A stretch of DNA of 64,000 nucleotides from Akanthomyces muscarius (taxonomy: Eukaryota > Ascomycota > Sordariomycetes > Hypocreales > Cordycipitaceae). Made by a program: the position numbers and the translations under genes. Below the pieces are notes generated by a model that saw only the letters and a list, made by a program, of their open reading frames with translations, searched no databases and was not told the origin of the DNA. The stretch lies in assembly GCF_028009165.1 (NCBI RefSeq), contig NC_079245.1, forward strand, positions 3,472,001 to 3,536,000, in the 5' to 3' direction. Shown one piece after another: positions 16,383 to 56,237 of the stretch; the first letter of the stretch is position 1; each line of letters begins with the position of its first letter.

Positions 16383-17311
16383 GCTACTTGGATTCTCATA
16401 GGGAGCGGTGTACTATGTATAGTATCTTGTAATGAAGTGATAGACGACTTTATGACAAGTTTTCGAGCAGAATGTTTCCTACTTCTGCCGTAATCTTACC
16501 CTAGCTTATAACAATTGAATAAATCTAAAAAAAACGAGGACATGATTTCCCCATCCAGAAAACGCAATAAGGCTGGCCACGCGCCATTCAAGACAATCCC
16601 TCTAGTGTGGGATGCACCATCGCTGCAAGGCACGATCTTGACGGAACCTTGATTTTCAAGCTTACACCTGGCCGAGGCAGCTTAGAAGATGCTTCCGCTT
16701 AGAGATAGTCTGCACTTACCTTGAAGCAACTCTTTATTCCATTTAGAGACACTAGAAGAACTCTACAACGCCGCGATCTACAAGGAGTGAATAGCTATCT
16801 AGTGCATCCTTTAGAGACAAGAAGCCCACCAGCGAAACCGCTCAGGGGCAATATTTGCCTCATCTATGCCAACTATACCATCCTCTTTAATAAAGCCTTA
16901 GTCTTTATCCTATAATACTAGATTGACAGTATCACATATATTAAAATTATCAGTCCTAACTAAGTCCATTAAAGCTAAGCCGCCATTACTCAAGTTAAGT
17001 GTATCGCCTCTATCCGCCCGGCTATCTATGCTAGGGTCGCCTAGGATGCCATCTAAGCCTGCCTGCGTCTCCTTTCTGTCGCCTCGCCTATATATGCTCG
17101 ACGTCCTCCGCTGCGAGGCAGTGCGCCGCATCATACGAACATAGCCCTTAGCGGCCCTCTCTTCCTGTACTATAGATGTTCGTGGGCTTCCCAAGTAATC
17201 TCACCCGAGGAAAAGCGCATGCTCGTAGTCGGCAGAAGTGGCATTCAGCGACACTCAAGAAGACTTGGCGTCGAATTGGAGATTTTCGGCCATGATGTAG
17301 GAGTGGAATAG
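16383..17311. other. AT-rich intergenic stretch with coding-like relics
   Basis: No intact gene. The interval 16900-17200 has unusually many CTA/TAG triplets and short open frames on both strands, which looks like a decayed, possibly transposon-derived sequence. I could not name a family. Confidence 0.3.
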
Positions 17312-17760
17312 CTAAAATGAAGCCTTATCCGTATAACGTGTGTCCCAATAGTAAGCAACTGCGTCTTGTAACATGCTGAGCTTTGACGGGATTTTTGCAT
17401 ATTTAGCCCTAAGCGAAATAAAAGTGTAGTTGAAGAAGGGAAAGTCTTCATCAGAAATATGATAGCCCTCTTTGCCAAATATGGCCTCTGCAATCAATGT
17501 GCCTTGCTGTTCAACGATTTTCTCCGCCTCTGCTTGGTTGGCTGGATCCCAAATTTCGTATCGAGCAATCTTTAATGCTAGTTCTAGGGCTTCCCGTCTG
17601 CCCGATCGGAGATTGCTGTGGCGTTCCGTAGTATGCGGCATAAGGATAGAGATGAAAACGTCGAAGAGATATTGATGAAGCGGTTGTAGAGACTGTTGCA
17701 CATGAGATGTCTTTGTCAGACGTCGTCGCACCTTTTTAGTTTCAATCAGCCAAAAGAAGT
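17312..17760 (-). CDS. Possible exon of an unrecognised protein
   Basis: An open frame of about 150 codons on the minus strand ends at 17312. It has protein-like composition, including ALELALKIARYEIWDP, AEKIVEQQGTLIAEAIFG and YHISDEDFPFFNYTFISL. There is no ATG at its 5' end; an in-frame stop lies just upstream near 17775. It is therefore either a 3' exon spliced to a short exon in 17775-17985 (which shows GGAPVWSINVTCSGE) or a fragment of a dead gene. A donor GTAATG exists at the end of the upstream frame, but I could not find a phase-consistent acceptor. Family unknown. Confidence 0.25.
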
Positions 17761-17999: not shown

Positions 18000-19105
18000 G
18001 AAGAATGACCTACCAATAATAGTTGCTGGTCGTAGTATAACAAAAACTAGCTACGTTGATACTCATCTGCCGCTCTTAGTATGCGAAAATTCCTTCAAAG
18101 TTTATAATGTGGCATTACATATCTGCACTATATCACCGCAAGGGCTTACAAGCCATAGTCATGCTGCGTAATCATTTCACGACCAGTTTTTCCATAATTT
18201 CCAGCCTACAGATGCGTCACCTCAATAGAATATAGAGTAAATAATTTCCGTTTCAGTGTTGGACAATGCAAAATAACCAGCACCATTAGAGAAACGGCAA
18301 GCGAATGGTAGACTCCGGCTACAAGTCTAGATCATCTGCCCTCGTAAGGACATTCGACAGAAATCTTCGGATTAATCTATAGTATACCCCACACTGTCAC
18401 GATCTGCATCTCGCAACGCCGGCGCCAGACCAGTATGACGATTCCGCTGGAGGAACCTGTCGCAAGCGGGCCGGAGCTGCAATGTATGGTCTGAGAACTG
18501 TCCGAGGTGGCAGACTCTGAGAGGCAAGCATGTGCAGATAATCTGGTTACGACGAAGCCGGCGGCCGTCTGGCGCCGAAGCAACAGCCCAGTCGCGGCTT
18601 CAAGGTGGATCCTCCGAGACAAACCTAGTTGAATTGTTGCGAACTGACGAACCCCGCTCACTAGAACGGCTTCAATTCACCGACAGAATGAAGCGTCCGT
18701 GGAATTGCATGCCATTGAAGAAAAGACGAACGAGTATCGTCAATTGATCATCGAGGCGACAATTGGGCTACGGATCCCTGTGTCGGAGAAATTGCGCAGA
18801 TGATACGACAGCCAGTGCCTTGGCGCAAGTCAGACCGCGGTGCTTGTAGCAAACGTGCCCTCTGTCCCCCGCCAAGCACTAAGCACGGGGGCACTCGGGA
18901 ACAGTAGCACTAATGATACCTTGTGCCCACCATAATTCCGGCGGATTGTCGCTGCTTAAATAGGGCATGCCAGGATCCTAATATGCGACAAGTCGTACAA
19001 CGTCTTCCACGCAGACATTCAAGCAGCATGTTCATAATGCCAGCTGCGCTGCACTATCTCTTCACAGTTATTTCCTGGTTACCGAGGTCAATTCGCGAGA
19101 CCATC
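18000..19105. other. Gene-poor stretch and promoter of the dioxygenase-like gene
   Basis: No intact gene. A GC-richer patch at 18400-18760 has broken coding-like frames on the plus strand with internal stops and may be a relic. The end of the interval is the promoter of the dioxygenase-like gene. It holds CTCCGA at 18612-18617, TCGGAG at 18783-18788 and a TTAAATAG box near 18956. Confidence 0.35.
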
Positions 19106-20183
19106 ATGCCCGACATGCTCATCCCTCCCATAGCAAACCATCCGCAAAAGGTACAACTTCGTCGAATAAGTCATGTATACTTTGAGCACCCGGACTTGAC
19201 TGTGTTCAAAGCCTTTGCAAAAGACTTCGGCTTCATTGAGTCACAGAGTGACGCCGACAAGGTCTACTTTAGAGGATACGGCATAGATCCTTACGTCTAC
19301 GTCGCGTCCAAAAGCGCAGACGGGCACCCCAGATTCCTAGGTGCCGCCTTCGTTGCCTCGTCCCGCGACGAATTTGACAAAGCAGCGGCGCTTCCCGGCG
19401 CGGAACTGAAGTCCCTTGAGGATGCTCCCGGCGGCGGCAGTATGGTTACGTTCAAACGCCCAGACTCCACATTTTTTCATGTTGTTCATGGGCAGACAGA
19501 ACGGGAAACAGGCAAGGAAGAGCCAACAGCCACTCATGTATACCAGGGTGACTTTAACAAGCCCTTCAATAAACCACGGCAAGGTTTGTTTCGCGGTTGA
19601 AATGCTATTCTACCCGCTAGGCAGTACATGCTAATAAAGGACTTCAGGTCGGTTCCAAAGGTTCACCCCAGGACCAGCGCTTGTGCATAAATTAGGACAC
19701 TTTGGCTACGTCGTGCCGGATTTTGACAACGAGCTTGCCTGGTACACGGAGAATTTTAATTTCGTGCCGTCGGATGTTTTATATCACTGGGACTTTTCAA
19801 ACATGGACGTGTTGACTTTTATGCATCTAGATCTTGGTGAGGAGTTCTCTGATCACCACTGTTTCTTTATGCAGAGAGCGGAGCCGCATGTGAGAAAGAC
19901 CTTTGTGCATCATACATCTTACGAAATTGCCGATTTCGACACGCAGCTTCTTGGGCACGACTGGCTTGCGAAAAAAGGCTGGAAGAGTGTTTGGGGTGTG
20001 GGCCGCCATGTCTTGGGTAGTCAGATTTTTGACTACTGGGCTGATCCAAGTGGGTTTAAAATCGAGCACTACGCGGACGGCGATCTGGTCAACGCGCATG
20101 TACCAACGAAACGAGATGTTGTTGGCCCTTTCTCTGTTTGGGGACCGGAAGTCCCAAAGGACTTTGCGGGCAAGGGTGTTTAG
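19106..20183 (+). CDS. Two-domain extradiol dioxygenase-like (glyoxalase-fold) protein
   Basis: Two exons, 19106-19583 and 19648-20183 (337 aa); the 64-nt intron has donor GTTTGT, a GCTAAT branch and CAG acceptor, joining PRQ|GRFQRFTPG. Residues about 18-140 form a first vicinal-oxygen-chelate domain (RRISHVYFEHPDL...FAKDFGFIE). The second starts at LVHKLGHFGYVVPDFDNELA. The usual metal triad is present: His in KLGHFGY, His in EFSDHHCFFM, Glu in GFKIEHYADGD. This fits type I extradiol dioxygenases (catechol 2,3-dioxygenase or biphenyl-diol dioxygenase type), which cleave a catechol next to the diol with Fe(II). An ATG 78 nt upstream (19028) is in frame and would add a hydrophobic leader; I prefer 19106 because family members start close to the first domain. 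First gene of the cluster. Confidence 0.82.
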
Positions 20184-20960
20184 TTAATATGTACTCTATG
20201 GTGCGAGAGTAATTTTGTGGTCGTTGCAAGCATGGTGGCTTAAATATACACATAGGAATCTATTTGGCAACCACTTCGGCAATCTAATGTTGCGCGGCCT
20301 TTGAGTCAAAGTCCCAACCTTGGCCAAACAAACTTGGGTACATTGCATAGCCTTTTCGTTTCAACTGTAGCAACCAAGTGACCTTCCGAAGATTTAAGCC
20401 ATGCCTCGCCGACAGAACCCGCCTGGCTGAACTACTCTCGGCTGAGGGCACGATGTAGGGCAGCTTCTACCGTTGTCTATGTGCTTCTGTATAGCTGGGT
20501 TATCCCTGTATGGCAAAGTATATTCGCTACTAGAGGACCGCTCACTAACCACCACCGACTGTGACAGTTAAGCTAGCCTATCGGAGCATCACTACTGGCG
20601 GCAGTCAGATTCAGGCCTAGTCGATTCAGTGACGTCGTTGGATCAATGATTTGACCACTTGGACTTCCTTCGCCGACAGACAATGGCTAAATTGAGCAGA
20701 GGATTGCTCTGCCTTGTCAAATTCCTGCAGCATCAATCGCCGGGGCAATTCCAGGTAAATGCGCGGCGTTTCGGCGCAGTGACTCTAGCGTCGGTAAAAC
20801 CATCGGAACTATTTGGTGTGATGCACAACCCAACTCCTCTCCAAACAAAGCCGTAAGTAATGAACCGGCTTTCTTAGGTCACTTGCCCAGGCTATTAATA
20901 AAGGACCAATTGACACAACGGAGGCACTCGAACTTCCCTCCCAGTATCAAACACTCGCAG
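20184..20960 (+). promoter_or_regulatory. Promoter region of the FAD monooxygenase gene
   Basis: A 777-bp non-coding interval between the dioxygenase-like and FAD monooxygenase genes. It contains ATCGGAGCATC at 20579-20589. These 11 bases also occur in the divergent OYE/P450 promoter at 25364-25374. No coding frame of note. Confidence 0.5.
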
Positions 20961-23000
20961 ATGGAATCAACCCAAGTCATCATTGTTGGCGCTGGCCCTT
21001 CTGGGCTGGTATTGGCCCTCACACTGGCACAATACCACGTTCGTGTATGTAGACACGGTGACCCCTGCTCTAAAGCTGATCTCACTTTTGATTTATCTAA
21101 TAAAACATCTAGTCAGTGATTCTAGAAAAACAGCTGTGCATTACTACAGATCCCCGAGGGGTCTACCTCACTGGCGATGCAGTTAGAATTCTGTATGCTT
21201 TGGGATTAGGCAACAAGTTGGAAGAAATTGGACATGGTATGCCAAGAACACCATTTCTACCATTCTTTTGCATGATCGACTGATGGAACTCATTGCACAC
21301 CGCAGAGTCAAAGAAGGTATGCTTTCATGAGTCCTCCTTCGCCCGACCACCATATTTTCAGATAAACGTCGGCACCGACAACATACTCGGGCAAGCTGTT
21401 CCAGAGGGCCTTTTGCAAATCCAACCAGTTCTCGGTAAAACTCAATGTGCAGCTCTGCGCAGCGTTATGCTGCTTCGTAATCGTGCCTGAAGCTAATCGA
21501 GTCGCAGAACGAGTGCTACGGGATGCAGTGGTCCAGTCCCCTTGGTGTTCGCTCAGGACAGGATGTACTGTGGTTGGGAGGCCAACGGAAGAGCCCCCAT
21601 CCGTAGAGTACCGAGACGATAACTGTCGGACTGGCGTTATTCGCGGACAGTGGCTTGTCGGCGCCGATGGCAAGACCGGCATTGTGAGAAAGTCTTTCCT
21701 GGAGCCCTGTGCCGGAATCAGACAGGAAGAAGGATGTTACCGTTATAATGGAACATGGGTTGCGGCGAACCTCAAAATTTCACTGCCTACCCCAGAGACT
21801 CATCCCGAGTTGTCGCTTTGGGAGCTTGGATATACACCACAGCAAGTATATGACCTGTTCTGGCCTGAGGGATGGCATTTTTGCAGCCCACCCGGTAAAC
21901 CCACTGCATCTGGAAGATTCGGTCCGCATAGCGAGAGGCTTTGGCGTCACGAATTTCGGCAGGCATCTGCGCACGAAACCAGAGATGTTCAACAACTTCT
22001 GTGGGAACACCTCTCGCCCATGATCACTCGGGAATGCGACGAGGATGGACGCAAGTTTCAGTCATCTGTACAATTTCCACGAGATTGTATAACAGTTCTT
22101 CGCTGTGAGCCATTCCGCTTCACGCACAAAGTCGTGAACAGATGGTACGATAAGCGGACAATTCTCATTGGTGATGCCGCGCATGTGTTTCCTCCCTTCG
22201 CAGGTCAAGGCATAGCCAGCGGCCTGCGAGATGCTCATCAACTGGGGTGGCGACTGTTTCTCCTCACAGACCGCGAGACTGGTGGCCCCAAGCTGATAGC
22301 CGGTGTCAATGCGTTGCTAGACTCTTGGGCGTCGGAGAGGCAATACAGCGTTCAGGATGCTGCATTCTTTTCTATGCTCATGGGGCGACTGTGCAACGAC
22401 AGGCTCTCGGTATGGGTTTATCTTCTTCTAAATCTTTTCATGCTGCTTGAGCGCAGGAGACTACTGCCTCGAGCAGTCAATCCCCAAGCTCATCAGGAGC
22501 GCAAAGGTTTCACTAGAGCGTCTGGTGGTTTCTTCATGAAGGGCAAGAATGGAGGGAGCCGTCTTGCCCAAATCCCCCTACGAGGAGACACTAAGAGCTC
22601 AGTTCTGCTTTCAGACACGATTCTACGCGAGTCGCGCAGCACGTTTACGCTTCTTGTCATTCAAAACGTCTCTGATGGGGAAGGGCCATACAAAGAGGCG
22701 ATAAACGCCATCCAAGGTGCAGAGGTCTGGGAAGATATTTTGTCTCTACAGTCTATTCGCGTTTATTATGTGGATGCGGCAAGCTCAGGCCCTTTGCCTC
22801 AAAATGAGGCCACGCGCCACACATACTCGCCATGGACGGAAGAGAGCGTAGGGGGGGAGAATCATCGCATATACCTGGATCGCATTGGCTCTTCTACAAA
22901 GTTTGTCATAATACGCCCTGACTTTTTTCTCTTTGCCGGCGCTCAAGATAGATTGGAACTGGACTTATGTTTGGCAGCCTTGAAGCGACAGCTGAGTTAA
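20961..23000 (+). CDS. Phenol-hydroxylase-type FAD-dependent monooxygenase
   Basis: Four exons: 20961-21044, 21113-21236, 21306-21434 and 21508-23000 (609 aa). Introns of 68, 69 and 73 nt have GTATGT, GTATGC and GTAAAA donors. The N-terminus is the FAD Rossmann motif VIIVGAGPSGLVLAL (residues 7-21). Later come the DG motif (VGADGKTGIVRKSF) and the GD motif at about 335 (LIGDAAHVFPPFAGQG). The last 160 residues (from about PLRGDTKSSVLLSDTIL) look like the thioredoxin-like C-terminal domain of phenol 2-monooxygenase and related class A flavoproteins. Expected role: NAD(P)H-dependent ortho-hydroxylation of a phenol to a catechol. The dioxygenase-like neighbour upstream would then cleave it. Alternative: a tailoring hydroxylase of a secondary metabolite. 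Confidence 0.9.
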
Positions 23001-23492
23001 AGAACCCCTTTGAAGTTGCTAGACTTCTTGATAATTCTATATGCAAGACTTTTGTATGAAAGAAATTAACAGAATCTAATTCCTGATTGGTGCTTTCCTA
23101 CTGTTTTGTGGACAGCTTGTAATGGACACCGTAGATAGCCTTTCCTCCAGCACTTTGAGTTAGATGCCTGCGTTATCATTATACAAAGCGTTATCTAGCT
23201 ATATAGGATTTATTAAAGTAGAAGGATCGAGCCTATCTATTTGCATAACTAAAACCTACTACATAACGTCTTCAAATGCCTCTCCCTAGCCACAACCAAC
23301 TACAACATAACGCGTTCTGAGAAGCTGTTGTCACATTGAAAATATTATAGAAAAGCAGCATTTGGATTCTTTAATTATCTCTCTTTGCAATGAATGGTCT
23401 AGATAGACTGACTTCACCTCTCCAAACCGCCATACAATAAATCGTTCCAGACCCTCCCAGTATGCAACCACACAAGAGCATTTCGAACACCG

Positions 23493-25176
23493 CTAAATGT
23501 TTCTCATTTTGGTTGCCCAGTATTTCTGCCCAACTCAGGTTAGCGAAAGTGTGCCAATCACTCACTAGTGCTCGGCTGGCGAGATTTGAGTACTCACAGT
23601 TTCTACTCCTGCGCCAACGGGTGGAATATACGATGCTAGCCATGTCCGGTTTACCAGGTCAATGTCAAACCGGGCTTCGTCATCTGGCAGATGACTATTA
23701 AAGACGATATCTTTGGGTAGGTGAGGATATTTGATAGCCGGTCTGCCAATGCCTACAAGATCACAAGCTCCACTTTCCAATGCAGCCTGGATGCCAGGTC
23801 GGCTGCGAAATCCGCCCGTCAGAATAATTACCAAGTCGGGAAATTCTGCGCGAATTCGCTTGCTTGCTTCTATAAAGAAGCCCTCACGAGCCTGAGTGCG
23901 TGCTGTCTTCATGGGTCGCCCTGCCAGGGACTGGTCGTTGCTCATCATCTGTACCGGTTGCGGTCAGTGTCGGGGCTAGAAATAAGTCACCGGGCTTGAA
24001 TTGACACGCTCTAGAAAACAAGCCTGAGAGCACAGCGCAATTGACGAGCAATGCGAACTAATGTGCACTTACTTGTGGGTTTTCAAAGGATCCGCCACTA
24101 AGGTTCAGGTAGTCAACTTGCTCCTTCTGGAGAACTCGCACCTGTTCCAACATATCGACGGCAGCATCGCTCTCCATATAATCCGCCGCGTTCATCTTCA
24201 CGCCAACACAGAATGATCTGGGAACAAGATCTCTGACGGCGCGGATGATTCGCAAAGTCAGCTCCACACGTTGGGTTGCTGAGCCACCGAACACATCCTG
24301 GCGGGTATTACTTGCCTGTGAGGCAAATTGGGAGAGCAGAAAGCCATCTGCGCCGGCTCATTAGCAATCTTCAATCGAATCCATTATCGTGTCAGATCGA
24401 TCACAGAGAATTTGCTTACGTCCCATGTGGATCTCGACACCCTGCAGCCCAGCCAATGATGCCAGCCTTGCCGCATTGGCAAATTGGGAAATGACCGCTT
24501 CAATGTCTTGTTGGGTCATTTCTTTCGGTGTACCAAATACCACAGCACCAGCTAGGCCAGCAAGGCAACTATTTCCGAGATTCATTGCAATAGCGCTAGG
24601 GGCAAGTGTTTTGGAGAAGAGTCGCCTATTCCCAGCTCCAATCGGCGACTGTCGACCAGGATGGTTTCTAGAGCGAAAGAATAAAAGTTAGCAATCACGA
24701 CTTAGTTGCGGCCCCGGGGGGAAAAAGGCTGCAACTTGGACTCGCTTCTGTCGTTGCAAGGCTTTACCCACAGTTGAGCAATGACACAGCAGTCGTAAGT
24801 CTGAGCTGCTTCCCCCCAGACTCCCCAGTTTCGGATTATGCTCGTTTCGGCTCCAGAGACAGCAACATCCCTCATGGATCCGAGATGATTAACATCGACC
24901 ATAATGTTCCCTATCCGTAGCCCGGACGAAACTTAGCCTTCACAGACAATACTGGAGCCGTATATTGGCAGCGTTGTGATGAGCCTCGATCTTACCGGTG
25001 ATTAGCATTGCCCAGCCTCCTGAAGCCCACTTGCTGTACATTTTCGAGTGCTGCTGAGTTGGTTGAAAGTTAATCGCCATACTTTCAGACATAGCGGTCT
25101 TGACGAGGCGATTTTTCAGCATTAAACCGCACGGAAGCTTTAGCGGCGTACTAGCGTGACAGTTCTTCAAAGTCAT
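23493..25176 (-). CDS. Old-yellow-enzyme family NAD(P)H:FMN oxidoreductase
   Basis: Six exons on the minus strand: 25176-24996, 24910-24772, 24667-24420, 24347-24073, 23948-23598 and 23525-23493 (408 aa). Joined exons give the family order LPCGLMLKNRLVKTAMSE, AMLITGNIMVDVNHLGS, CVIAQLNHPGRQSPIGAG, VEIHMGHGFLLSQFASQA, SNTRQDVFGG, KMNAADYMES, YLNLSGGSFENPQ, ILTGGFRSR and DLVGIGRPAIKYP (FMN-binding). Members bind FMN and reduce activated C=C bonds or act on 2,4-dienoyl or morphinone-type substrates. The last exon is short and its acceptor is my best choice, so the final 11 residues are less certain. Convergent with the FAD monooxygenase and divergent from the P450, with which it shares a 534-bp promoter. 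Confidence 0.87.
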
Positions 25177-25710
25177 GGTGAGCTGCTGAGGCTGCGTTAG
25201 CCTTGGCCGTTTTACCAGTAGCAAAGAGAAGCAGAGAATATTGCGTTGGAGAAAGCAAAATGTCAGCGACATGGAAATCATCTCTCCAGATGGTCCCGCT
25301 TTCGGTTGCCTGTAGCTCGACTGAGTAGCCCAAAGGAGAAACGCAGAGTAGGCTAGCAGTTCCATCGGAGCATCTCCATCGGAGTATCTCCGACAAAATG
25401 ATATGCCGAAGAGTTAAACTACGGGATGTCTCACTGAAGCTGTCCCGTGCGCTGAGCTATTCCAGTTCCGCGGAATTCAACATTGTATGGACATGAACGG
25501 AGCAATGCTGTTGAGGAATCCATGTGTTTTAGTCATCTGCTTCCGGGGCACACAAATCCAAGTCATTGCTACAGATAGCCATGCTTAGGCCACTTTTCGG
25601 ACAAAGCTCTGTAGAATAAATAGCCCCTAGTACTTGAACGCTAAGGAGACCACTATCTGCGAGACTACGATTCATTATCTTCAGTTCCTCATTATTTTGT
25701 GAAACATTCC
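25177..25710. promoter_or_regulatory. Divergent promoter of the OYE and P450 genes
   Basis: Non-coding interval between two divergently transcribed cluster genes. It holds a tandem pair of near-palindromic 14-15-bp units (annotated separately), suited to coordinated control of both genes. Confidence 0.6.
25363..25393. promoter_or_regulatory. Tandem palindromic CGG-type sites (candidate Zn2Cys6 binding site)
   Basis: Two direct copies, CATCGGAGCATCTCC and CATCGGAGTATCTCC, repeat with a 14-bp period. The second extends to the perfect palindrome TCGGAGTATCTCCGA (25379-25393), that is CGG-N7-CCG. CGG/CCG inverted repeats with fixed spacing are the usual targets of dimeric Zn2Cys6 regulators, and one is encoded 3 kb away. 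Confidence 0.5.
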
Positions 25711-27526
25711 ATGATGCTGCAAATCTGCCCGGAAGGATGGCTAATCTGGCTTGCGACCGGTCTTCTATGCGCGAGTATTGTACACGTTGCTCACCAAGCA
25801 TACTTCTCTGACCTACGGAAAATTCCTGGCCCTCGGCTAGCGAAGTTTTCGACCCTGTACCGCATCCTCATGGTGCGTCAAGGACATGCACCGATGGAAT
25901 ACAGGAGACTGCACAGTCAGTACGGCCACATCGTGCGTACCGGACCAAAGCATGTGTCGGTCTCGGATCCTGACATGATTCCTGTCATTTATGGAATAGG
26001 ATCTAAATTCAAGAAGGTAGCAAAGACACTTTTTTTTAGCACTCTCAGTGATGCTGATCACACGCCCAGACCCCATTTTATATGACTATGGCCCCAATCT
26101 ATGAAGGCTCTCGAATGGACAGCCTCTTCACGGAACGAGACCCGCAAACGCACAAAGCTTTGAAGACACAGGTCGCGCAGGTGTTCTCCATGACGAACAT
26201 GCGCAATTTTGAGACTTACGCAGACGAGTGTACCAAAATCTTCATGGATTCTATGCTGGATCCGGACGGCCAAGTCATCGACTTCGCTCAATGGCTACAG
26301 TGGTATGCGTTCGACGTCATAGGTAGTATTACTTTCCAACGTCGATTTGGATTTCTAGAAGAGAGACGAGATGTTGATTCGATGATTCAGAAGATCAATA
26401 ATGGGTTGGAATACGTGAAGGTGATCGGTCAGTCGGAGTGGCTCGTTGCACTTTTCGACGTCTTGTCAACCCTCCAATGGATCAAATCCATGCACTTATG
26501 GCCAGATACTATGGAGAGGTTTCTTGAGGTGCGCATAAAATGTCGACCAGAATGCCTAACCAAGAGCTAATAAGGATGCCAATAGATCACAGAGAGCGAA
26601 CTGGTACAATATGACTGTGAAAGCAAGGACCCCACGAGGACAGATTTTCTGTCGCAATTACGAGCAAAACAACTAAACTCCGGGAAAATATCGAGCCGAG
26701 ATATGATGAATCATCTATCCAATAACCTGTATGTTATTCAAGTCAATGTTTCAATTCAAGTTCCATCATACTGATTCATCTAGTCTTGCAGGAAGCGACA
26801 CCACTGGCATATCTCTGCGCGCTGTGTTCTACTACGTTATCAGGGATAGTCGCGTGTCGACAAAGCTGGTCAGTGAAATCGACACCGCTGACGCCAAAGG
26901 CAAGCTCTCCGAGTTTGTGACCTACAACGAGTCCTTGGAGCTGCCATACCTGTAAGGGTAACCACCATAACTAAACTGTTGAGCATTGTCTAATAGAGCC
27001 CACAGGCAAGCGGTCTTGAAAGAAGCCATGCGGATGCACCCTGCCGTTGGATTTCCATTGGAGCGTTACACCCCTGCCGAAGGCGCGGAGATATGTGGAT
27101 ACTCACTACCTCCTGGGATCAACGTGAGCATCTCAGCTCCCGTAATCCACTTGAATAAAGAGGTTTTCGGTGAGGACGCGGAGCATTTTCGGCCTGAGAG
27201 ATGGATCGAAGCAAATCAAGAGCAGTTGAAGACCATGAACCGCAGTTTCCTTGCTGTAAGTACAGAACCACTCGAATAGTTCCTCCTGGAAGCTAATATT
27301 ACCGGATTAGTTTGGTCATGGAACTAGAACTTGCATCGGCAAAAATATTTCCCTGATGGAGATGGGTAAGTTCGTACCGCAGATCTTCCGTCACTTCCAA
27401 ATTGAATGGAAGGCTCCAAGCCCCGAGTGGAACCTTCACGCAGCTTGGTTTTGGAAACAATCTGATATGCTTGTCAGCTTGACAAGCCGGGTGCGGAAGC
27501 AGGATGAAATTGAAATCCTATCATGA
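25711..27526 (+). CDS. Cytochrome P450 monooxygenase
   Basis: Six exons: 25711-26016, 26070-26528, 26586-26728, 26784-26951, 27006-27255 and 27311-27526 (513 aa). All five introns are 53-57 nt. An N-terminal membrane anchor (WLIWLATGLLCASIVHVAH) is followed by the proline hinge KIPGPRLAKF. The I-helix motif is AGSDTT (305-310), the ExxR motif is EAMR (365-368), the PERF-like region is HFRPERWIE, and the heme loop FGHGTRTCIG starts at 443 with Cys450 as thiolate ligand. All key P450 residues are present, so it should be active on the ER face. Sequence style (PFYMTMAPIYEGSRMDSLF) resembles the pisatin-demethylase-like fungal group. Substrate unknown; cluster context suggests O-demethylation or hydroxylation of an aromatic compound. 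A GTG 12 nt upstream is not the start. Confidence 0.92.
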
Positions 27527-28135
27527 CGGAGTTCAGATCATACAGAAAAGACTATACAGATGCTAGCACGTGGTGGATAACTTATGAAAGACAATCGAGT
27601 CCTGGATTTCGACTACTCAGTCAAGATGAGGGCAGTCAGGTCGCGCGGGGGGCAGTCCTCGCTCAATAGTCGTGGCGGTGCGGTCAGCGTGCAGGTCAAG
27701 TTTCGTGACAGGTCCATTTAGGACCTCCCTTTCTATCTCGTTGACTAGTTCTCCTTGTATGCAGATTGTTTAATAATAACAAATAAATCTCTTCGAAACT
27801 TGAAAGAGAGGTCTGGAGGACCTCTTCTAAAATGCCATCCACGTACCAACCACGCCAACACTTCGGCAATTACACCTGTGTTATTGTTATCTTCCTACAA
27901 GTTGCCAATTGTTCATACGGCGCAGCACAAGCTCAACAACATGTAACCAGGCGCTTTTTGGCATCACAATACTAGTAGCAGGTTGATAATGCTTCTGGAT
28001 TCATCTAGCTACAGACAGCGTACGCGTAAGTTGATGTTGCGGTTTCCTCGCGTGACATCTGTTTTGACCACTGATTAAAGCGATTCGCGAGCTCTAGCGC
28101 GGTCGCCTAAGATACAGTGGAAGCAACAACTAGTA

Positions 28136-30367
28136 TCAATCATAATCAGCGCTAATTGGTGACTGGCGGATCGTTGGGATGTCCCAGTTGAGCCTGCATC
28201 GAAGAAAGAAACCCCAACCATCGAGGATGCGATGGAGCGGCAAATTGAGCAGCAAGTAACTGTATATGCTGATGTCCCAGTGCTCCATGCACAGATTCTT
28301 TGATACTGTGAAATGAGACTGCATCCAGTTAGGGGGAACTTGCGGGGCTTCGAAGGTACGGATTTAGCACTCACGGATCAGTAACCTAGGTAACATCCAG
28401 ATATTGGCGAATTGTTCAAGCTGCAGAAGCAAAACAGTCTCAAGATGGTCAAGTTCATTTTGAGATACATTTCTTGGCAGTGACGACTTTTTGTGGAAGT
28501 GTACAAATACCACGGCTGTAAAGAAGATGTAGGAAATTGCGGGATCAACACAAAGGCAAAATGTGTTGTCCCATTGCTCTGCTATCAGAGCAACATCTTG
28601 GGCAGATTCCAAGACTTGCTGCCACTTGAGAGGCCATTCGTCTCCAATGTCACGGCTTCCGCAATGAAAAATAGCTATTATAAGCCTTGCCATGTGAAGA
28701 TGAAGTATGGTGACAAGCCTAGAGTGGTGATCAAGCTTGCTCTCACCCGCAAGCGCATTTCGCATGGGATTCAGATAATTGGCTGGAAGTGTAAGCCGAA
28801 GTGCATTGAGCTGCCGTTCGATACTTGCCGACTTCTCAATGTTGACATTATCAGTCTGACGTCGAGATCCAAACCGTTGTTGAAACCCGCGTTTCACACT
28901 CCGCATGGTAGCAATAGTGACAAGATGCAAATTGAAAAGCTTGGTAGAGTCTGAAACTTCAGCAACAGGAGAGACTAATTGCCGCAGCTTGTCCAACTCC
29001 GAGTGCAGGTAGAGACACCTTGCATGCTGTGGATTTCGCAGAAGCTCAGTTGCTGCGAGATCCTCATGGATCATGTACGGCGTACCTGCGGCGAAGTTTG
29101 CGTACGAGTCGAGGCGGTATATGCACCACCACAGCATGCGCCAGTCATTTTGGTCTTCATCTCGCAACGCGAACCCATCCCAATTGTGACCAGTTTTCTG
29201 TTGGCTGACTGCTGGGCGATCAGGGTCATCAAGTCGATCAAGGCCCATCCAATAGGCTGCTCTAACAAGCTTTCCTACTTTTTCCCATGCTTGATGACCA
29301 GGAAACTGATGAAACTCATAAAACGATATGAGACAAACTTTGCGCATCTGATCCAAAGAAAGGAGCCCGAGACATTCCTCATAAATGCTAGTTGAGCTTA
29401 GAAGGAGTTGAATATGAGCGTCAAGCTCCGTATCACCAACTGAGGCAAGACGAAACTTCGTCAGCTTCGCCATCAGAATGCATATAGTTAGCAAAAGATC
29501 TTGACTGCACAAAGGCAGCGCGAGCGTCATTGGCTGAGAGAAGATCGGGAGTGCATGGTGAAGCGTTTCCATGTACTTGTCTAGCCTATCTCCGGTTGTA
29601 GATCATTAGCAAGTAGCTCTTCTCAAGTAAAGAATGGCGTTAATGTTGCGTACAAGAATGTCTGCTCTTGAGGGGCTATATATGGAGGCCCAGCATTCGA
29701 CGTCTGTTTTTGTATGTTTTGCGGCGCTTCAGCAAGCAAACTAGGTCTCAGATGGGATGGGGAAATCGCCGTGCGTATTGCAATGCCAGTTGGCGAGATT
29801 GCAGGATAGTTCGCGACTGAGCTGGTAGCAAGACACTCGTCAACTTGTTCGCCGTCCCGTTCAGCAACTGGTTTATTCACGCGTTAGTTGACTGTCGCAC
29901 TCTTTAATATTAGAAGCAATGGATGGGTAAGCATCACCAGAGGTCACGGGCTTATCCGCAACGAGCGCATTCCTTGGAGTTGCGACTTGTTTCTTAGTGC
30001 CACGACGAGGTCCTGGTTTCCGGCGTTTCAATGAATAGACGCAGACAATTCCACGATCGGAGCAACGGGAGCAACTCGGAATCTCCAATGTGCCTACCGC
30101 TCGGAGGAGAATAAATTAGCATCGAAAGTCAGCCCAGATGATAGCCGTGGTCAGAATGATAATGAAATCGCGCCGATTCTGAGTTTTGTATTTGCCGGGC
30201 TGGTTACGCACACTTCACTTTCTGCCTGGAGCTAGTCAGTTCATACGTGCGATGTGCGATGACTAGATCGAAACAAAGACGCACCGAATGCAATTGTCGC
30301 AAACCCGGGAGCTCTTCTCAGCATACCGTATACCGCGATCACTTATGAGCTGTGCGGAGAGATCCAT
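28136..30367 (-). CDS. Zn2Cys6 fungal-specific transcription factor (cluster regulator)
   Basis: Six exons on the minus strand: 30367-30285, 30225-30212, 30093-29938, 29867-29654, 29585-28375 and 28305-28136 (615 aa). The zinc cluster is split over three exons, including a 14-nt microexon. Joined, it reads C23-DN-C26-IRQKVK-C33-TLEIPS-C40-SR-C43-SDRGIV-C50, an exact C-x2-C-x6-C-x6-C-x2-C-x6-C. A basic linker (KRRKPGPRRGTKKQ) follows. The middle has the fungal transcription factor domain (MGLDRLDDPDRPA, RMLWWCIYRLDSYANFAAG). The last exon is inferred from a GTGAGT donor and a TTTCACAG acceptor and gives DGWGFFLRCRLNWDIPT. Without it the protein would stop 11 bases past that donor. Divergent from the FAH-family gene with a 395-bp shared promoter; likely controls the cluster. 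Confidence 0.85.
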
Positions 30368-30762
30368 ATTACGGGCGAAGAGCGGAACGTTGAATAAACA
30401 ATCCGTGGAGCATAGACAAGCGTGGGTACACGTATATAGGTTGGAAGCAGATTTGAGTAGAACCCTGAAAAGTTTGTCCGGAGAACCCACGGCAACATGC
30501 CCCCCCAGTCCATCCGACGGTTCCACCACCACTGTAGCATGCTGCGTGGAGGTTCTTCCGACACTAGTCGATCCTCCGATTTACCACAATTACCCCCGGG
30601 CAATACTTCGCATCGACTCTGGCCGAGACTCTTACGACCGTGCGAATGGCAGGCTGACTAATTATCTTTACCAGCACTTAAAACGCCAGGTGATTCTCAG
30701 AGATATGTAAAGCCCTCCGACGAAGATCTATGCAAACATACATTTTACTAAAAAAGACCAGA
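30368..30762. promoter_or_regulatory. Divergent promoter of the Zn2Cys6 and FAH-family genes
   Basis: Non-coding interval between the start codons of the regulator and the hydrolase gene. It carries CTCCGA at 30574-30579 and 30715-30720, the latter under 50 bp from the hydrolase ATG, plus further TCCGA half-sites (for example near 30507 and 30556). Confidence 0.5.
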
Positions 30763-31885
30763 ATGACCGCGTTCCACCATTTGATTCGATTCGAAGCTGC
30801 CGAAGAGGAAGGCATTTTTTTCGCCGATTTGGGCCCTGGCGCGGATGGGCCGCCTCGTATAGGAGAATCTATTGCTGCGTATAGTACAATTGGCGACTTG
30901 TTAGACAAACGAGACTCAAAGACAGCGGTCATTCAACGGGTGGGTGGCAGCAGCTCCGAGCGTGTCCACTAAGCTCAAATCTAATCCCACTTTGCAGCTT
31001 CTCGCACCACTTCCTCGCGACGATATCCCTATATATTGTGTAGGACTCAACTACTACAGCCATGCAAAGGAAGCTAGAGTACGAGATTTTCTCAGAACTG
31101 ATTGGAAACTGTGCTAACAATGGCGCTGGGAAAGCTCACAATCCCGTCGTATCCTCCGCTTTGGACAAAACCGACAGCAGCGCTTGCTCAACCTAACGAA
31201 GACATACAAGTCAATGATTTTTGTGCTCAAAGCTTGTTGGATTACGAGGTGTGTTGATAGCGAGGAAAGGGCAACAATTTTTACCCGTACATGCTAATGG
31301 TATCCATGGACCACAGGGAGAACTGGTGGTTGTCACTTCGAAAGAGTGCAAGGATATTACAGAGAATGAGGCCAAGGATTACATCCTAGGTTACACCGTC
31401 GGAAATGACATATCTTGCCGAAAATTCCAGCGTCAGAGTAACTCGGGTGGCCAGTTCTTCTACGCCAAGGCATTCGACAAGTTTGCGCCTATTGGTCCAA
31501 CACTGATCAGCCCGGAAGCTTTTGCAGCCTTGCCTTCGGCCCAGGTCGTTACCAAGGTAAATGGACAGATTCGTCAAACAGCAGACTTGAAGAACGACAT
31601 GATTTTCTCGCCAGCAAAAATTCTCAGCCACATGAGCCAAGGTACGCTTTGAGATCTCACAGTTTTGGCCATTTGGATAAAAAGCCGTAACTGATTTCCC
31701 TTTTAGGTACAACTATCCCCGCAGGAACGGCCATTATGACAGGTACTGCAGCAGGAGTCGGTGTCTTTCTTCAGCCTGCGGCATTTCTCAACCATGGTGA
31801 CATCGTGGAAATCTCCATGGACAAGGTTGGCACTCTTCGGAATAAGTTTCACTTTCAGTATGCCAAACCGAAAGCAGAACCTTAA
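30763..31885 (+). CDS. Fumarylacetoacetate-hydrolase superfamily enzyme (acylpyruvase/dienedioate hydrolase type)
   Basis: Five exons: 30763-30939, 30998-31078, 31135-31248, 31317-31641 and 31707-31885 (291 aa). Introns of 56-68 nt all have good signals. Joined exons give IYCVGLNYYSHAKEAR, LLDYEGELVVVTSKECKDIT (acidic metal ligands DYEGEL), LGYTVGNDISCRKFQ (third ligand Asp), GTTIPAGTAIMTGTAAGVGVF and DIVEISMDKVGTL. Length of about 290 aa fits the short FAH group (acylpyruvate hydrolases, 2-hydroxyhepta-2,4-diene-1,7-dioate isomerase) and not the 420-aa tyrosine-pathway enzyme. These Mg(II)-dependent enzymes split the C-C bond of 2,4-diketo or related acids, the step after extradiol ring cleavage. 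An in-frame ATG 33 nt upstream (30730) is possible but less conserved. Confidence 0.88.
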
Positions 31886-51843: not shown

Positions 51844-54800
51844 ATGCAGACCGCCATTGGCTGCGCGAGCCTGGCAGCCGTTGCGCTCCTCGCACGCCAG
51901 TGTTTGCGCGCTAGAAGTAGATCTGGCCAGTCGCAACATCTGTATCAAGATGAAGACGGAACAGCGACGCAAGACTCTGCAGACAATGTGCTCAGACTTG
52001 CTTCAGCCAAGTACTTCATGAATGTCGCCGCTGCAGCTGGAATCGCTACATCACTCTTAGATGTCAGCTCTTCTGTCCTCATGAAACAAAGGAGGTTGCC
52101 AGCCGCGGCCGCTTTACGCATCGGCCTATGGGTATGTTGGTTGAAGATGATCCAATCGGCCATGTTGCTGATCTGTCAAGCTTCTCGTTTCCGTTCAGGC
52201 GCTCACGATTGCAAATGAGAGTGGTGTACGCGAGCGCTACAAACAAGGTATCTACGCAGCAGCGTCAGCCGCAATGCTCGCGCTTTACATTACCCAACAA
52301 GATGTCATGACGGAACGCCTGATCGCCATCACTTCGACAGAGAGAGCTTGCGCATTATCAATTGCCATCGCTTGCTTGACCTTGCCTCGACGCCCCGCAG
52401 TGTACGAGGACGGCCGCCTAGTCGACCAACAGAATGGTGCCTCCGTCATCTCTCTGCTTTCATTCTCTTGGTATCCATTTTACCAGCCCAGCTTTTATAG
52501 TTTCGACAGTTTGAGACTACTCAACGTGCCAATTACGCCTCTTGCACAGAGAATCCGAACTGTGCGACGAGATTTTATACAATGCGCCTCTGGTGACATG
52601 CTTTTGTCGCAACTGGCCTGGGCATGGAGATCTTCTTTCTCTATGCAGTGGACTCTCACACTGCTACACAGTATGTCTCAGTTCTCTGGCCAATATCTGC
52701 TTCAGCGACTACTTGGCTGCCTGGAGCAGCCTCATTCTCAGCAGCAGCATGCCATGGGATATGCTTTGTGCCTGGGCTTGGCTCTATTGTCTGAAAACAT
52801 GTCTGCAGGCTGGATCACCTGGGTCACCCAAGCAAAGCTTTCCATTCCGATGACTGCTTTGCTTAAGGGTCTCTTGTTTGAAGAGATGACTAAAAAGCAA
52901 AGCTCACAGCGGACTAAACCAAAGACTGGAAAAGGCGAGAATGTGCTCTCTTTGGAAAGTCTTATGTCATACGATTGGTAGGTTTGTATCTCCAGCGTCC
53001 GGCCAATGCTGATGAATTCTAGCGCGTCGGTATCCCAGGCGTGCGTCTCGACCCAGCACTGTCTCAAGGCTGCCTTTAAACTACTTTTTGACGTGACCTA
53101 TCTCATACATCTCATCGGTCCCAAGCACATCGCCATTGGCAGCTTATTTCCTCTCATATTATTTCCCATCTCAAAGATGCTTGCCCATCGGCATAGACTT
53201 GCCAAGGCAGACCTTTCAAGTTTGCACACTGCATTTTCTACTGAAGTGTCAGAGCTGCTTCGAAATCTCCGCCAAATTCGTCTGTCATCCATGGAAGAGC
53301 TTTGGCAGCAGCGCGTCATCAGATCCAGAGCCCGTGAACTGGGACAAATCTGGCACTGCGGGATAATTCTGGCAATGCTGACCCTGATGACCAACCTTGG
53401 TCCAATTTTACTGATATCCGTCTCGCTTTCCTCCTATGCCCTTGAAGTCGGTCGCCTGCGACCATCGCTTGCTTTTGCTTCTATTGGCTTGTTTCGCAAT
53501 CTTCATGCCGTTATCCAAGATCTGCCTGCCATGCTAGCCAGTCTACAAGAGTCTCTCGCAGCGAGCAGGCGTATCGAGCTCTATCTGCACCAGCCTAGGA
53601 AAACTCGAGCTCCCAATGCCGATTTATCCTCTTTCGAAGATGCCAACATAGCATGGCCACACGCAAGCTTAGTTCCAGGCTCCGCAGGTTCATGTTTCAG
53701 TCTGAAAGGTGTAAATTTGCGCTTCCCGAAAGGAAGACTGAGTATTATTACCGGAAAAACTAGCGCTGGCAAAGGCCTCTTGCTCTCTGCACTCCTTGGT
53801 GAAGCTGACATTGAATCGGGAAGCTCCAAAGCAGCCTCCGAGCTCACGGCTGAGAAGCCGACGAATGCATCCACGTCCGACTTCGCCTATGTATCGCAAC
53901 CGCCATGGATAGAGAATCGGACTATCAAACAAAATATCGTTTTTGGTGACGCATTTGACGAGGAGCGGTACACGACTGTCATACGTGCTTGTGCTCTTGA
54001 GCGAGACCTTGAAGCTCTTTCCGCTGGAGACATGACAATGGCGGGAGTCAACGGCGGAGCTCTCAGTGGCGGTCAAAAGTGGCGAGTCAGCCTGGCACGA
54101 GCCTTATATTCTCATGCTGGGGTCATTATACTTGACGACGTTCTCAGTGCTGTGGACCCGCATGTTGCAAAGTGGCTTTGCCAGAATGCCTTGTCAGGCA
54201 AGTTGGTTCGCGGCCGTACAGTGATTATCGCGACTCATCACCTAGCTACCTGCGAACACTTGGCAAGTTATGTCGTTACTGTTGATTCTGGCACTGCTTC
54301 GGGCAGTGTTGCTGTTCCGCGGCATATCAATGAACTCCTGAACATCGAAAATATGCCTAGATCCGCCACCAGCAGCCCGAAACCGGATCTTATGGGGCAA
54401 TCCACAGATGAAAACAAAAGGACTCCCGCTACTTCTAAGCGCTCTGTCCGGCAAACCTTTGCCGTGTACCTTTTGGGTAGCGGGACACGGCCAGTTCTGC
54501 TCGCAGTCTTGGCAACATTTGCATGCCGGCTCATCGCAGCGGGAAACTCATGGTGGTTGACGAACTGGACTTCAAGAACAAATCTCGATAGCATAAGCCT
54601 CCGTTTCAACCTGTCCGTGTATTTGGCCTTATCGGTTTGCGCGGCCATTGCCTTGGCAATACATGCCACGGCTGTCCAGGGAGTCAGCCAGCGAGCATCA
54701 GAGGCCCTGTTTCAAAAGACGGTAAGGGCTGTGTTGCAAAGTCCTCTGCGATGGATAGACAGTGCATCGATGGGAAAGCTGTTGCAAAGTCTCGCCTCCG

Positions 54801-56237
54801 ACATGTACTTGATTGATCACCGAGTCGCAGCAGGCCTGAGTGACTTGTTGCGAATCGTCATGCAGCTAATTTTTGTTGTTTTTACCAGGTAAGTGACAAC
54901 GTATTCGTGACCCATATCATACTAATAGAAGTAGCGGAACAACCGCGCCTCAAACCATTGCCATGATGGTTGTGATGCTGACGTTTTACTTCAAAATCAC
55001 TGCAAGGCACCTGCGCATGTCCAAACACCTTAATAAGCTTATCCCACTCGCGACACAGCCTATTTTAGAGCATGCCAACTCCACAGAGTCCGGAGTTCTG
55101 ACGATACGGGCTTTCAAAAAAGAGTCAACGTATGTTGAGCGCATGTATGACCTCTTGGATGTCGACCTGGGTCTGAGCTGGCACATTACTCTGGGCCAAA
55201 GGTGGATTCATGGCCGATATGGTATTCTTGGCTCGTTATTCGTCTGCGCCACAGCAGCGTCCCTGGTGCTTTCGGGTTCCGATGCTGCTACGGCAGGCTT
55301 TGCCATCAACGTGGCCCTTCAAATCAAGTCAACAATGAGTGGAATGATGGGCAAGATAAATCTTCTCACAAGCGGAGCTCGTGCTGTGGACCGTGTACTC
55401 GAAATTGTTGATGCTCCTATTGAGAACCAAGAGGGCGACAATTTGGCCAAGTCTTGGCCTGCTTCCGGCAGCATCAAAGTTCAAGACATGGCAGTTCGGT
55501 ACGATGCAAACCTGCCACTTGTTCTTCGCGGCATTACATTTTCACTTGCCCCGCGCGAACGCCTCGGCGTTGTTGGCCGTACAGGTGCCGGGAAAACAAG
55601 CCTCGTCAATGCCTTGCTCCGCTTCATTGACATGGAAGGGGGGAGTATACATGTCGATGGCGCGAATATTGCCTCCGTCAAACTGACTCGTCTTCGAGGC
55701 TCCATATCGTTCATACCTCAAGATCCGCTCTTGTTTTCAGACACGCTGCGCGCCAACTTGAATATTCATGGAAACAAATCGGACGACGAGTTGCAGGCAG
55801 CTCTGAAAAAGGTGGCTATACAAGCTACGGATGCAAATAATGCGATTGACACTCTGAACGACCTGGACATGGCTATCCACCCGGGGGGCGAGAATCTCTC
55901 CCACGGACAGAGGCAGATGGTCTGCCTCGCCAGAGCAATCCTCGACCCTCGGCGCATTGTTATACTAGACGAAGCAACCAGCGCTGTGGATAAAGCGACC
56001 GATGCCATGGTTCAACAAGTCATTCGTAGGGAGTTTGCAAAATCTACCATCATTGTTGTAGCACATAGGCTGGCCACAGTTGCCGATTTTGACAAGATCC
56101 TGGTCTTGGACGAAGGTACGGCTGTGGAATTCGGGTCACCGGCCGACTTGGTGCAAAAGAAGGGTATCTTTTGGGACATGGTGAATCAGAGCGGAGATGC
56201 AGAAAATGTGCGAACGGCTATCGAGGCGCGTGGCTGA
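51844..56237 (+). CDS. Full ABCC-type (MRP-like) ABC transporter
   Basis: Four exons: 51844-52131, 52199-52977, 53023-54888 and 54935-56237 (1411 aa). Introns are 67, 45 and 46 nt. Layout is TMD0-like N-terminus, TMD1, NBD1, TMD2, NBD2. NBD1 has the P-loop TGKTSAGKGLLL (about 596-607), where the Ser/Thr after the Lys is Gly; signature LSGGQKWRVSLARAL (about 703); Walker B VIILDDVLSAVD, with Asp instead of catalytic Glu as usual in ABCC. NBD2 is canonical: GRTGAGKTS (about 1190), LSHGQRQMVCLARA, IVILDEATSAVD and switch His in VVAHRLATV. ABCC pumps export conjugates, drugs or toxic metals at the vacuole or plasma membrane. The last intron has tandem acceptors 3 nt apart (GAAG/TAG), so one extra Ser is possible. 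The very short first exon leader makes the N-terminal topology uncertain. Confidence 0.88.

What the first reader, a model, noticed from the sequence alone, without database searches (positions are those of the whole stretch)
19106..31885. Six-gene candidate aromatic meta-cleavage or detoxification cluster
Seen: an extradiol dioxygenase-like protein, a phenol-hydroxylase-type FAD monooxygenase, an OYE-type reductase, a P450, a Zn2Cys6 regulator and a short FAH-superfamily hydrolase lie next to each other with no unrelated gene between. Known: phenol hydroxylase, extradiol dioxygenase and FAH-fold hydrolases catalyse successive steps of bacterial meta-cleavage pathways, while fungi mostly use intradiol (ortho) cleavage. 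Inference: the cluster encodes a fungal route that hydroxylates, possibly demethylates, then extradiol-cleaves an aromatic compound, with the OYE reducing an unsaturated intermediate. No transporter or backbone synthase is present, which favours catabolism over biosynthesis.
Basis: partly seen in the sequence, partly recalled or inferred. Interest (0 to 1): 0.78.

Follow-up and report, generated by a model that had tools for sequence, protein, structure and literature searches.

The report
Fungal aromatic ring-opening gene cluster
Six neighbouring fungal genes look like a jointly controlled pathway that opens aromatic rings next to, rather than between, their hydroxyl groups, a route well known in bacteria that some recent papers describe as uncharacterised in fungi.

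The parts
19028..20183 (+). EDO: two-domain type I extradiol dioxygenase, 363 aa, exons 19028-19583 and 19648-20183; metal ligands H203, H274, E325
   Evidence: gene model; Pfam; conservation; AlphaFold model and structure matches
20961..23000 (+). FMO: group A FAD aromatic hydroxylase, MhpA-like, 607 aa, exons 20961-21042, 21117-21236, 21306-21434, 21508-23000
   Evidence: fold of homologue P0124
23493..25176 (-). OYE-type FMN oxidoreductase, 408 aa, six exons; His pair present, usual catalytic Tyr replaced by Phe
25711..27526 (+). Cytochrome P450, 513 aa, six exons; heme-Cys motif FGHGTRTCIG, AGSDTT and ExxR seen in the translation (motifs recalled)
28364..30367 (-). Zn2Cys6 regulator with Fungal_trans domain, 562 aa, five exons (start codon uncertain)
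30763..31885 (+). FAH-superfamily hydrolase, 291 aa, five exons; nearest named model is a 2,4-diketo-acid hydrolase, below cut-off
18608..18617 (-). TCGGAGNATC site upstream of EDO
20581..20590 (+). TCGGAGNATC site between EDO and FMO
25365..25388 (+). two tandem TCGGAGNATC sites in the divergent OYE/P450 promoter region
30570..30579 (-). TCGGAGNATC site in the divergent regulator/FAH promoter region

Best explanation
A six-gene, probably co-regulated catabolic cluster for a substituted phenol. Inferred sequence: the P450 (and perhaps the OYE-type flavoenzyme) prepares the phenol; the FMO adds a ring hydroxyl to give a catechol or, more likely, a trihydroxybenzene; the Fe(II)-type EDO opens the ring beside the diol (meta cleavage); the FAH hydrolase splits the resulting 2,4-diketo acid into a 2-oxo acid and a carboxylic acid; the Zn2Cys6 protein switches the set on through TCGGAGNATC-type sites. 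Shown here by sequence and fold: gene content, intact EDO, FMO, P450 and FAH motifs, an extradiol-dioxygenase fold with the metal and second-sphere residues, and linkage of EDO-FMO-FAH in other fungi and in bacteria. Inferred: order of steps, substrate, direction (catabolism), regulator-site pairing and the roles of P450 and OYE.
Against: No expression or activity data. EDO is only 14-23% identical to the solved enzymes listed, and every listed NCBIfam model is hit below cut-off. The OYE carries Phe at the Tyr position. Linkage of P450, OYE and regulator in other fungi was not tested. The motif was picked after looking; without the leading T, 8 of 100 shuffles of the window reach its count of five, and some shared one-wildcard pattern of any kind arose in 46 of 300 random region sets. 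Bacterial OYE co-location is 17 of 18 Pseudomonas. PMC10512348 (passages) found that deleting putative ring-cleavage genes of A. niger, extradiol ones included, did not stop growth on gallic acid; whether those are this VOC type I did not establish.
Confidence: 0.66

Rival explanations
1. Only EDO, FMO and FAH form the pathway; OYE and P450 are lineage-specific neighbours or peripheral adaptors that do not act in it.
For: The trio recurs in other fungi; P450 is near 0 of 80 and OYE near 18 of 80 bacterial EDO relatives. OYE lacks the Tyr.
Against: Two TCGGAGNATC sites lie in the OYE/P450 promoter region, and OYE and P450 sit between FMO and the regulator.
Confidence: 0.3
2. Detoxification: the cluster opens the ring of a plant or microbial phenol without supporting growth.
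For: None of the six genes is a transporter. PMC8896014 (passages) proposes this as an alternative for another fungal extradiol enzyme.
Against: Presence of a hydrolase for the cleavage product argues for complete breakdown to central metabolites (inference).
Confidence: 0.2
3. Tailoring or turnover of an endogenous secondary metabolite made elsewhere in the genome.
For: P450, FAD monooxygenase, OYE and Zn2Cys6 regulator are also common in fungal biosynthetic clusters (general knowledge); biosynthetic PieE and catabolic HbpA are both among the closest folds of the FMO homologue.
Against: None of the six genes is a backbone synthase; bacterial relatives lie in FMO-EDO-FAH loci that look catabolic.
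Confidence: 0.12

Closest known systems
hcdABC operon of Pseudomonas mandelii 7HK4 (PMC6222606; passages plus sections 8 and 13 read)
   Same: class A FAD hydroxylase + type I extradiol dioxygenase + FAH-family hydrolase, adjacent; the published pathway ends in hydrolysis of a 2,4-dihydroxy-6-oxo dienoic acid
   Different: bacterial; the operon has no P450, OYE or Zn2Cys6 gene; its sequences were not fetched, so orthology was not tested; the first step of that pathway is by an alcohol-dehydrogenase-type enzyme (PMC7913881, search listing only)
Bacterial FMO/OYE/EDO/FAH loci, e.g. Pseudomonas sp. GM79 (L036)
   Same: same four enzyme classes within about 7 kb
   Different: EDO relatives of this scan are 33-40% identical to the window's; acyl-CoA synthetase, FadL-type and (by eye) TetR-type genes instead of P450 and Zn2Cys6
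Fungal gentisate cluster of Scedosporium (PMC8283699, passages)
   Same: P450, monooxygenase, FAH, Zn2Cys6 regulator around a ring-cleaving dioxygenase
   Different: the dioxygenase is gentisate 1,2-dioxygenase, and an MFS transporter is present
Fungal extradiol CDO3 of Ceratocystidaceae/Endoconidiophora (PMC8896014, passages)
   Same: fungal extradiol dioxygenase acting on phenolics, with ring-cleaving activity in vitro according to that paper
   Different: class III (LigB-type); the authors could not identify a complete meta-cleavage pathway

Membership tests
Type I (VOC) extradiol dioxygenase | two-domain VOC fold like catechol 2,3-dioxygenase/BphC | tested here: met
Type I (VOC) extradiol dioxygenase | 2-His-1-Glu metal triad | tested here: met
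   aligned to BphC 1han
Type I (VOC) extradiol dioxygenase | second-sphere His and Tyr residues (role recalled) | tested here: met
   H256, H306, Y315
Type I (VOC) extradiol dioxygenase | ring-cleavage activity | not testable with these tools
   needs purified enzyme
Catechol 2,3-dioxygenase, HpaD or BphC equivalog | NCBIfam score over cut-off | tested here: not met
   best 44.5 bits (TIGR03213, cut-off 366.45)
Phenol hydroxylase with Phe_hydrox_dim | PF07976 domain | tested here: not met
   PF01494 but no PF07976 at E 0.01
MhpA-type 3-(3-hydroxyphenyl)propionate hydroxylase | NCBIfam score over cut-off | tested here: not met
   best NF004829 185.9 bits, cut-off 390
Group A FAD aromatic hydroxylase | FAD_binding_3 domain and PHBH-like fold | tested here: met
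   domain in the window protein; fold only in homologue P0124
Old Yellow Enzyme | FMN barrel PF00724 and active-site His pair | tested here: met
Old Yellow Enzyme | proton-donor Tyr (role recalled) | tested here: not met
   Phe where all three PDB chains aligned have Tyr; the codon lies just after a modelled splice site
FAH-superfamily acylpyruvate/2,4-diketo-acid hydrolase | PF01557 domain | tested here: met
   206.2 bits
FAH-superfamily acylpyruvate/2,4-diketo-acid hydrolase | score over a specific equivalog cut-off | tested here: not met
   NF053535 137.9 bits, cut-off 500
hcdABC-type operon | FMO, type I EDO and FAH adjacent | tested here: inconclusive
   all three classes are in the six-gene cluster and EDO-FMO are neighbours, but FAH is separated from them by OYE, P450 and the regulator
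hcdABC-type operon | sequence orthology to HcdA, HcdB, HcdC | not tested
   sequences not fetched
hcdABC-type operon | substrate 3-(2,4-dihydroxyphenyl)propionate | not testable with these tools
   needs assay

The most novel reading that the evidence does not exclude
A complete eukaryotic meta-cleavage pathway that is widespread across Sordario-, Dothideo-, Eurotio- and Leotiomycetes, carried as a mobile EDO-FMO-FAH core shared with bacteria, to which fungi added a P450, a Zn2Cys6 switch and an N-terminal helix on the dioxygenase.
Probability: 0.45. Interest if true: 0.75.

Novelty: new variant of a known kind. Interest (0 to 1): 0.57.

Why it matters
[quoted passage not shown] Ten searches of the held open-access library (at most 20 rows listed each) showed no paper on this cluster in the rows listed. 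The cluster gives a concrete trio, a candidate regulator and a candidate binding site, so the question becomes directly testable by expressing three proteins and deleting two genes.

Tried and rejected
Phenol-hydroxylase label: rejected, no PF07976. Coumarin reading (OYE reduces the pyrone ring as the first step of an hcd-like route): kept only as a guess, because in P. mandelii the first step uses an ADH-type enzyme (PMC7913881, listing) and this OYE lacks the Tyr. Benzoxazolinone link: PMC10512309 (passages) has an FAH in a BOA-induced cluster with a cupin and an FAD-domain gene, but the terms extradiol and glyoxalase do not occur in its text. Acetaminophen link: PMC10146002 (passages) reports an induced extradiol dioxygenase gene in Penicillium chrysogenum; whether it is of this family was not established. 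RIP or pseudogene: no stops in any model and no marked dinucleotide shift across the cluster (TA/AT 0.55-0.89 in the 1-kb steps from 19 to 32 kb; threshold recalled). Vertical-only inheritance of EDO: class labels, which I assigned from memory, need 15 changes (minimum 3, shuffled mean 27.3), so the distribution is mixed (61 of 69 named rows used, eight dropped by me, plus the window). Plasmid EDO relatives are all under 60% identity; the 40 of 93 records listed gave no named characterised homologue. Exact 8- to 10-mers shared by all four promoter regions: none; the one-wildcard motif came from a second look. A first comparison of N-terminal extensions with bacteria (6 of 79) is withdrawn, because those translations began at the match start; it was redone from the most upstream start codon.

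Full report
What is there. The window lies in a 36.2 Mb genome of 12 contigs, at C5:3,472,001-3,536,000; C5 is 3,970,546 bases long. I rebuilt the six genes by hand from the sequence using splice sites and homologues. All introns are GT-AG and no model has an internal stop. The order is EDO(+), FMO(+), OYE(-), P450(+), regulator(-), FAH(+). Pfam supports each above its cut-off.

The hydrolase. FAH has PF01557 at 206.2 bits. Its nearest named model is a 2,4-diketo-acid hydrolase (137.9 bits, cut-off 500), then HpaG-C (110.3). The five alignments shown keep a His-x-x-Glu pair, which I recall as the catalytic dyad of acylpyruvases. An EDO plus a single FAH and no aldolase or semialdehyde dehydrogenase fits a trihydroxylated ring whose cleavage product is already a 2,4-diketo acid, as in hcdABC (PMC6222606, sections 8 and 13 read). 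This step is inference.

OYE and P450. The OYE has PF00724 and the His pair, but Phe where the three aligned PDB chains have Tyr. A typical alkene reduction is therefore doubtful; quinone reduction or another role is possible. The P450 is complete, and its PDB matches are spread over unrelated substrates, so no substrate can be read from it.

Bacteria. In flanks of up to 6 kb, tblastn (E 1e-6) with the fungal proteins found FAH in 71, FMO in 49 (all with FAH), OYE in 18, all three in 13, and P450 in 0. Identities are low (FMO 23-39%, FAH 27-36%, OYE 27-44%); 43 of the 49 FMO and 16 of the 18 OYE matches span at least 250 positions, and 10 of the 13 triple loci pass that for both. Three other window proteins, run as controls, hit 0, 0 and 1 of the 80 loci; no random bacterial loci were available as a second control. 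L036 shows FMO, OYE, EDO, FAH, an acyl-CoA synthetase and a FadL-like gene, with two frames that I read as TetR-type by eye. Of the 18 OYE-bearing loci 17 are Pseudomonas, so they are not independent.

Regulation. CGGAGNATC was noticed while scanning the promoter regions. It occurs five times in the window (2.09 expected, 8 of 100 shuffles reach five); with a preceding T, TCGGAGNATC, five times (0.50 expected, 0 of 100 shuffles reach five). All five lie in the four promoter regions that serve the six genes. Genome-wide the word is not enriched (193 against 189 for the reversed control). A one-wildcard 9-mer common to all four regions arose in 5 of 300 Markov shuffles and in 46 of 300 random sets of window regions; one of CGG type in 0 and 3 of 300. 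The motif was chosen after looking, so I treat it as good but not conclusive evidence.

Genome background. The genome also has intradiol dioxygenases (five PF00775 matches at four loci) and one LigB match, so it need not depend on this route. The one EDO paralogue found is on C6. Cluster genes have GC3 of 0.47-0.56 against 0.52-0.88 for eight other long window frames. The EDO tree mixes fungal classes (assigned from memory): 15 label changes, minimum 3, shuffled mean 27.3, compatible with horizontal transfer, duplication and loss.

What is known. [quoted passage not shown] flavus intermediates that suggest an extradiol gallate dioxygenase, and reports that putative A. niger ring-cleavage genes were not needed on gallic acid; PMC12388069 (passages) calls extradiol enzymes less common in fungi; PMC8283699 (passages) shows a gentisate cluster with a similar supporting cast and counts gentisate cleavage as extradiol. 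I therefore do not claim that fungal extradiol chemistry is unknown, only that I found no paper describing this VOC-type cluster in the rows that my searches listed. Verdict: a new variant of a known kind.

Noticed in passing
G000:C1:1,056,000-1,064,100 (L021): A second, different cluster: FAH (62% identical to this one), a single-domain VOC protein, an FAD hydroxylase with Rng_hyd_C and a P450; one TCGGAGNATC site lies about 3.4 kb away.
   Followed up: partly
G000:C6:466,000-486,000 (L017, L018): EDO paralogue (53% and 42% identical pieces) in a neighbourhood with a cupin-like protein, an X-Pro peptidase (S15)-type hydrolase, a Zn2Cys6-like frame (by eye) and a frame with FAD-binding and ADC domains.
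   Followed up: partly
window 16,750-17,320: A 571-base stretch left of the cluster has one other match in the genome (C11, 73% identical), possibly an old repeat.
   Followed up: partly
window 52,172-56,237: ABC-transporter frames with low GC3 like the cluster (0.52-0.54 in two of them), about 20 kb to the right.
   Followed up: no
P0142, P0160, P0184, P0222 (Colletotrichum): Predicted fusions of a short-chain dehydrogenase with the FMO, perhaps merged neighbouring genes, suggesting an SDR beside the FMO there (P0142 read).
   Followed up: no
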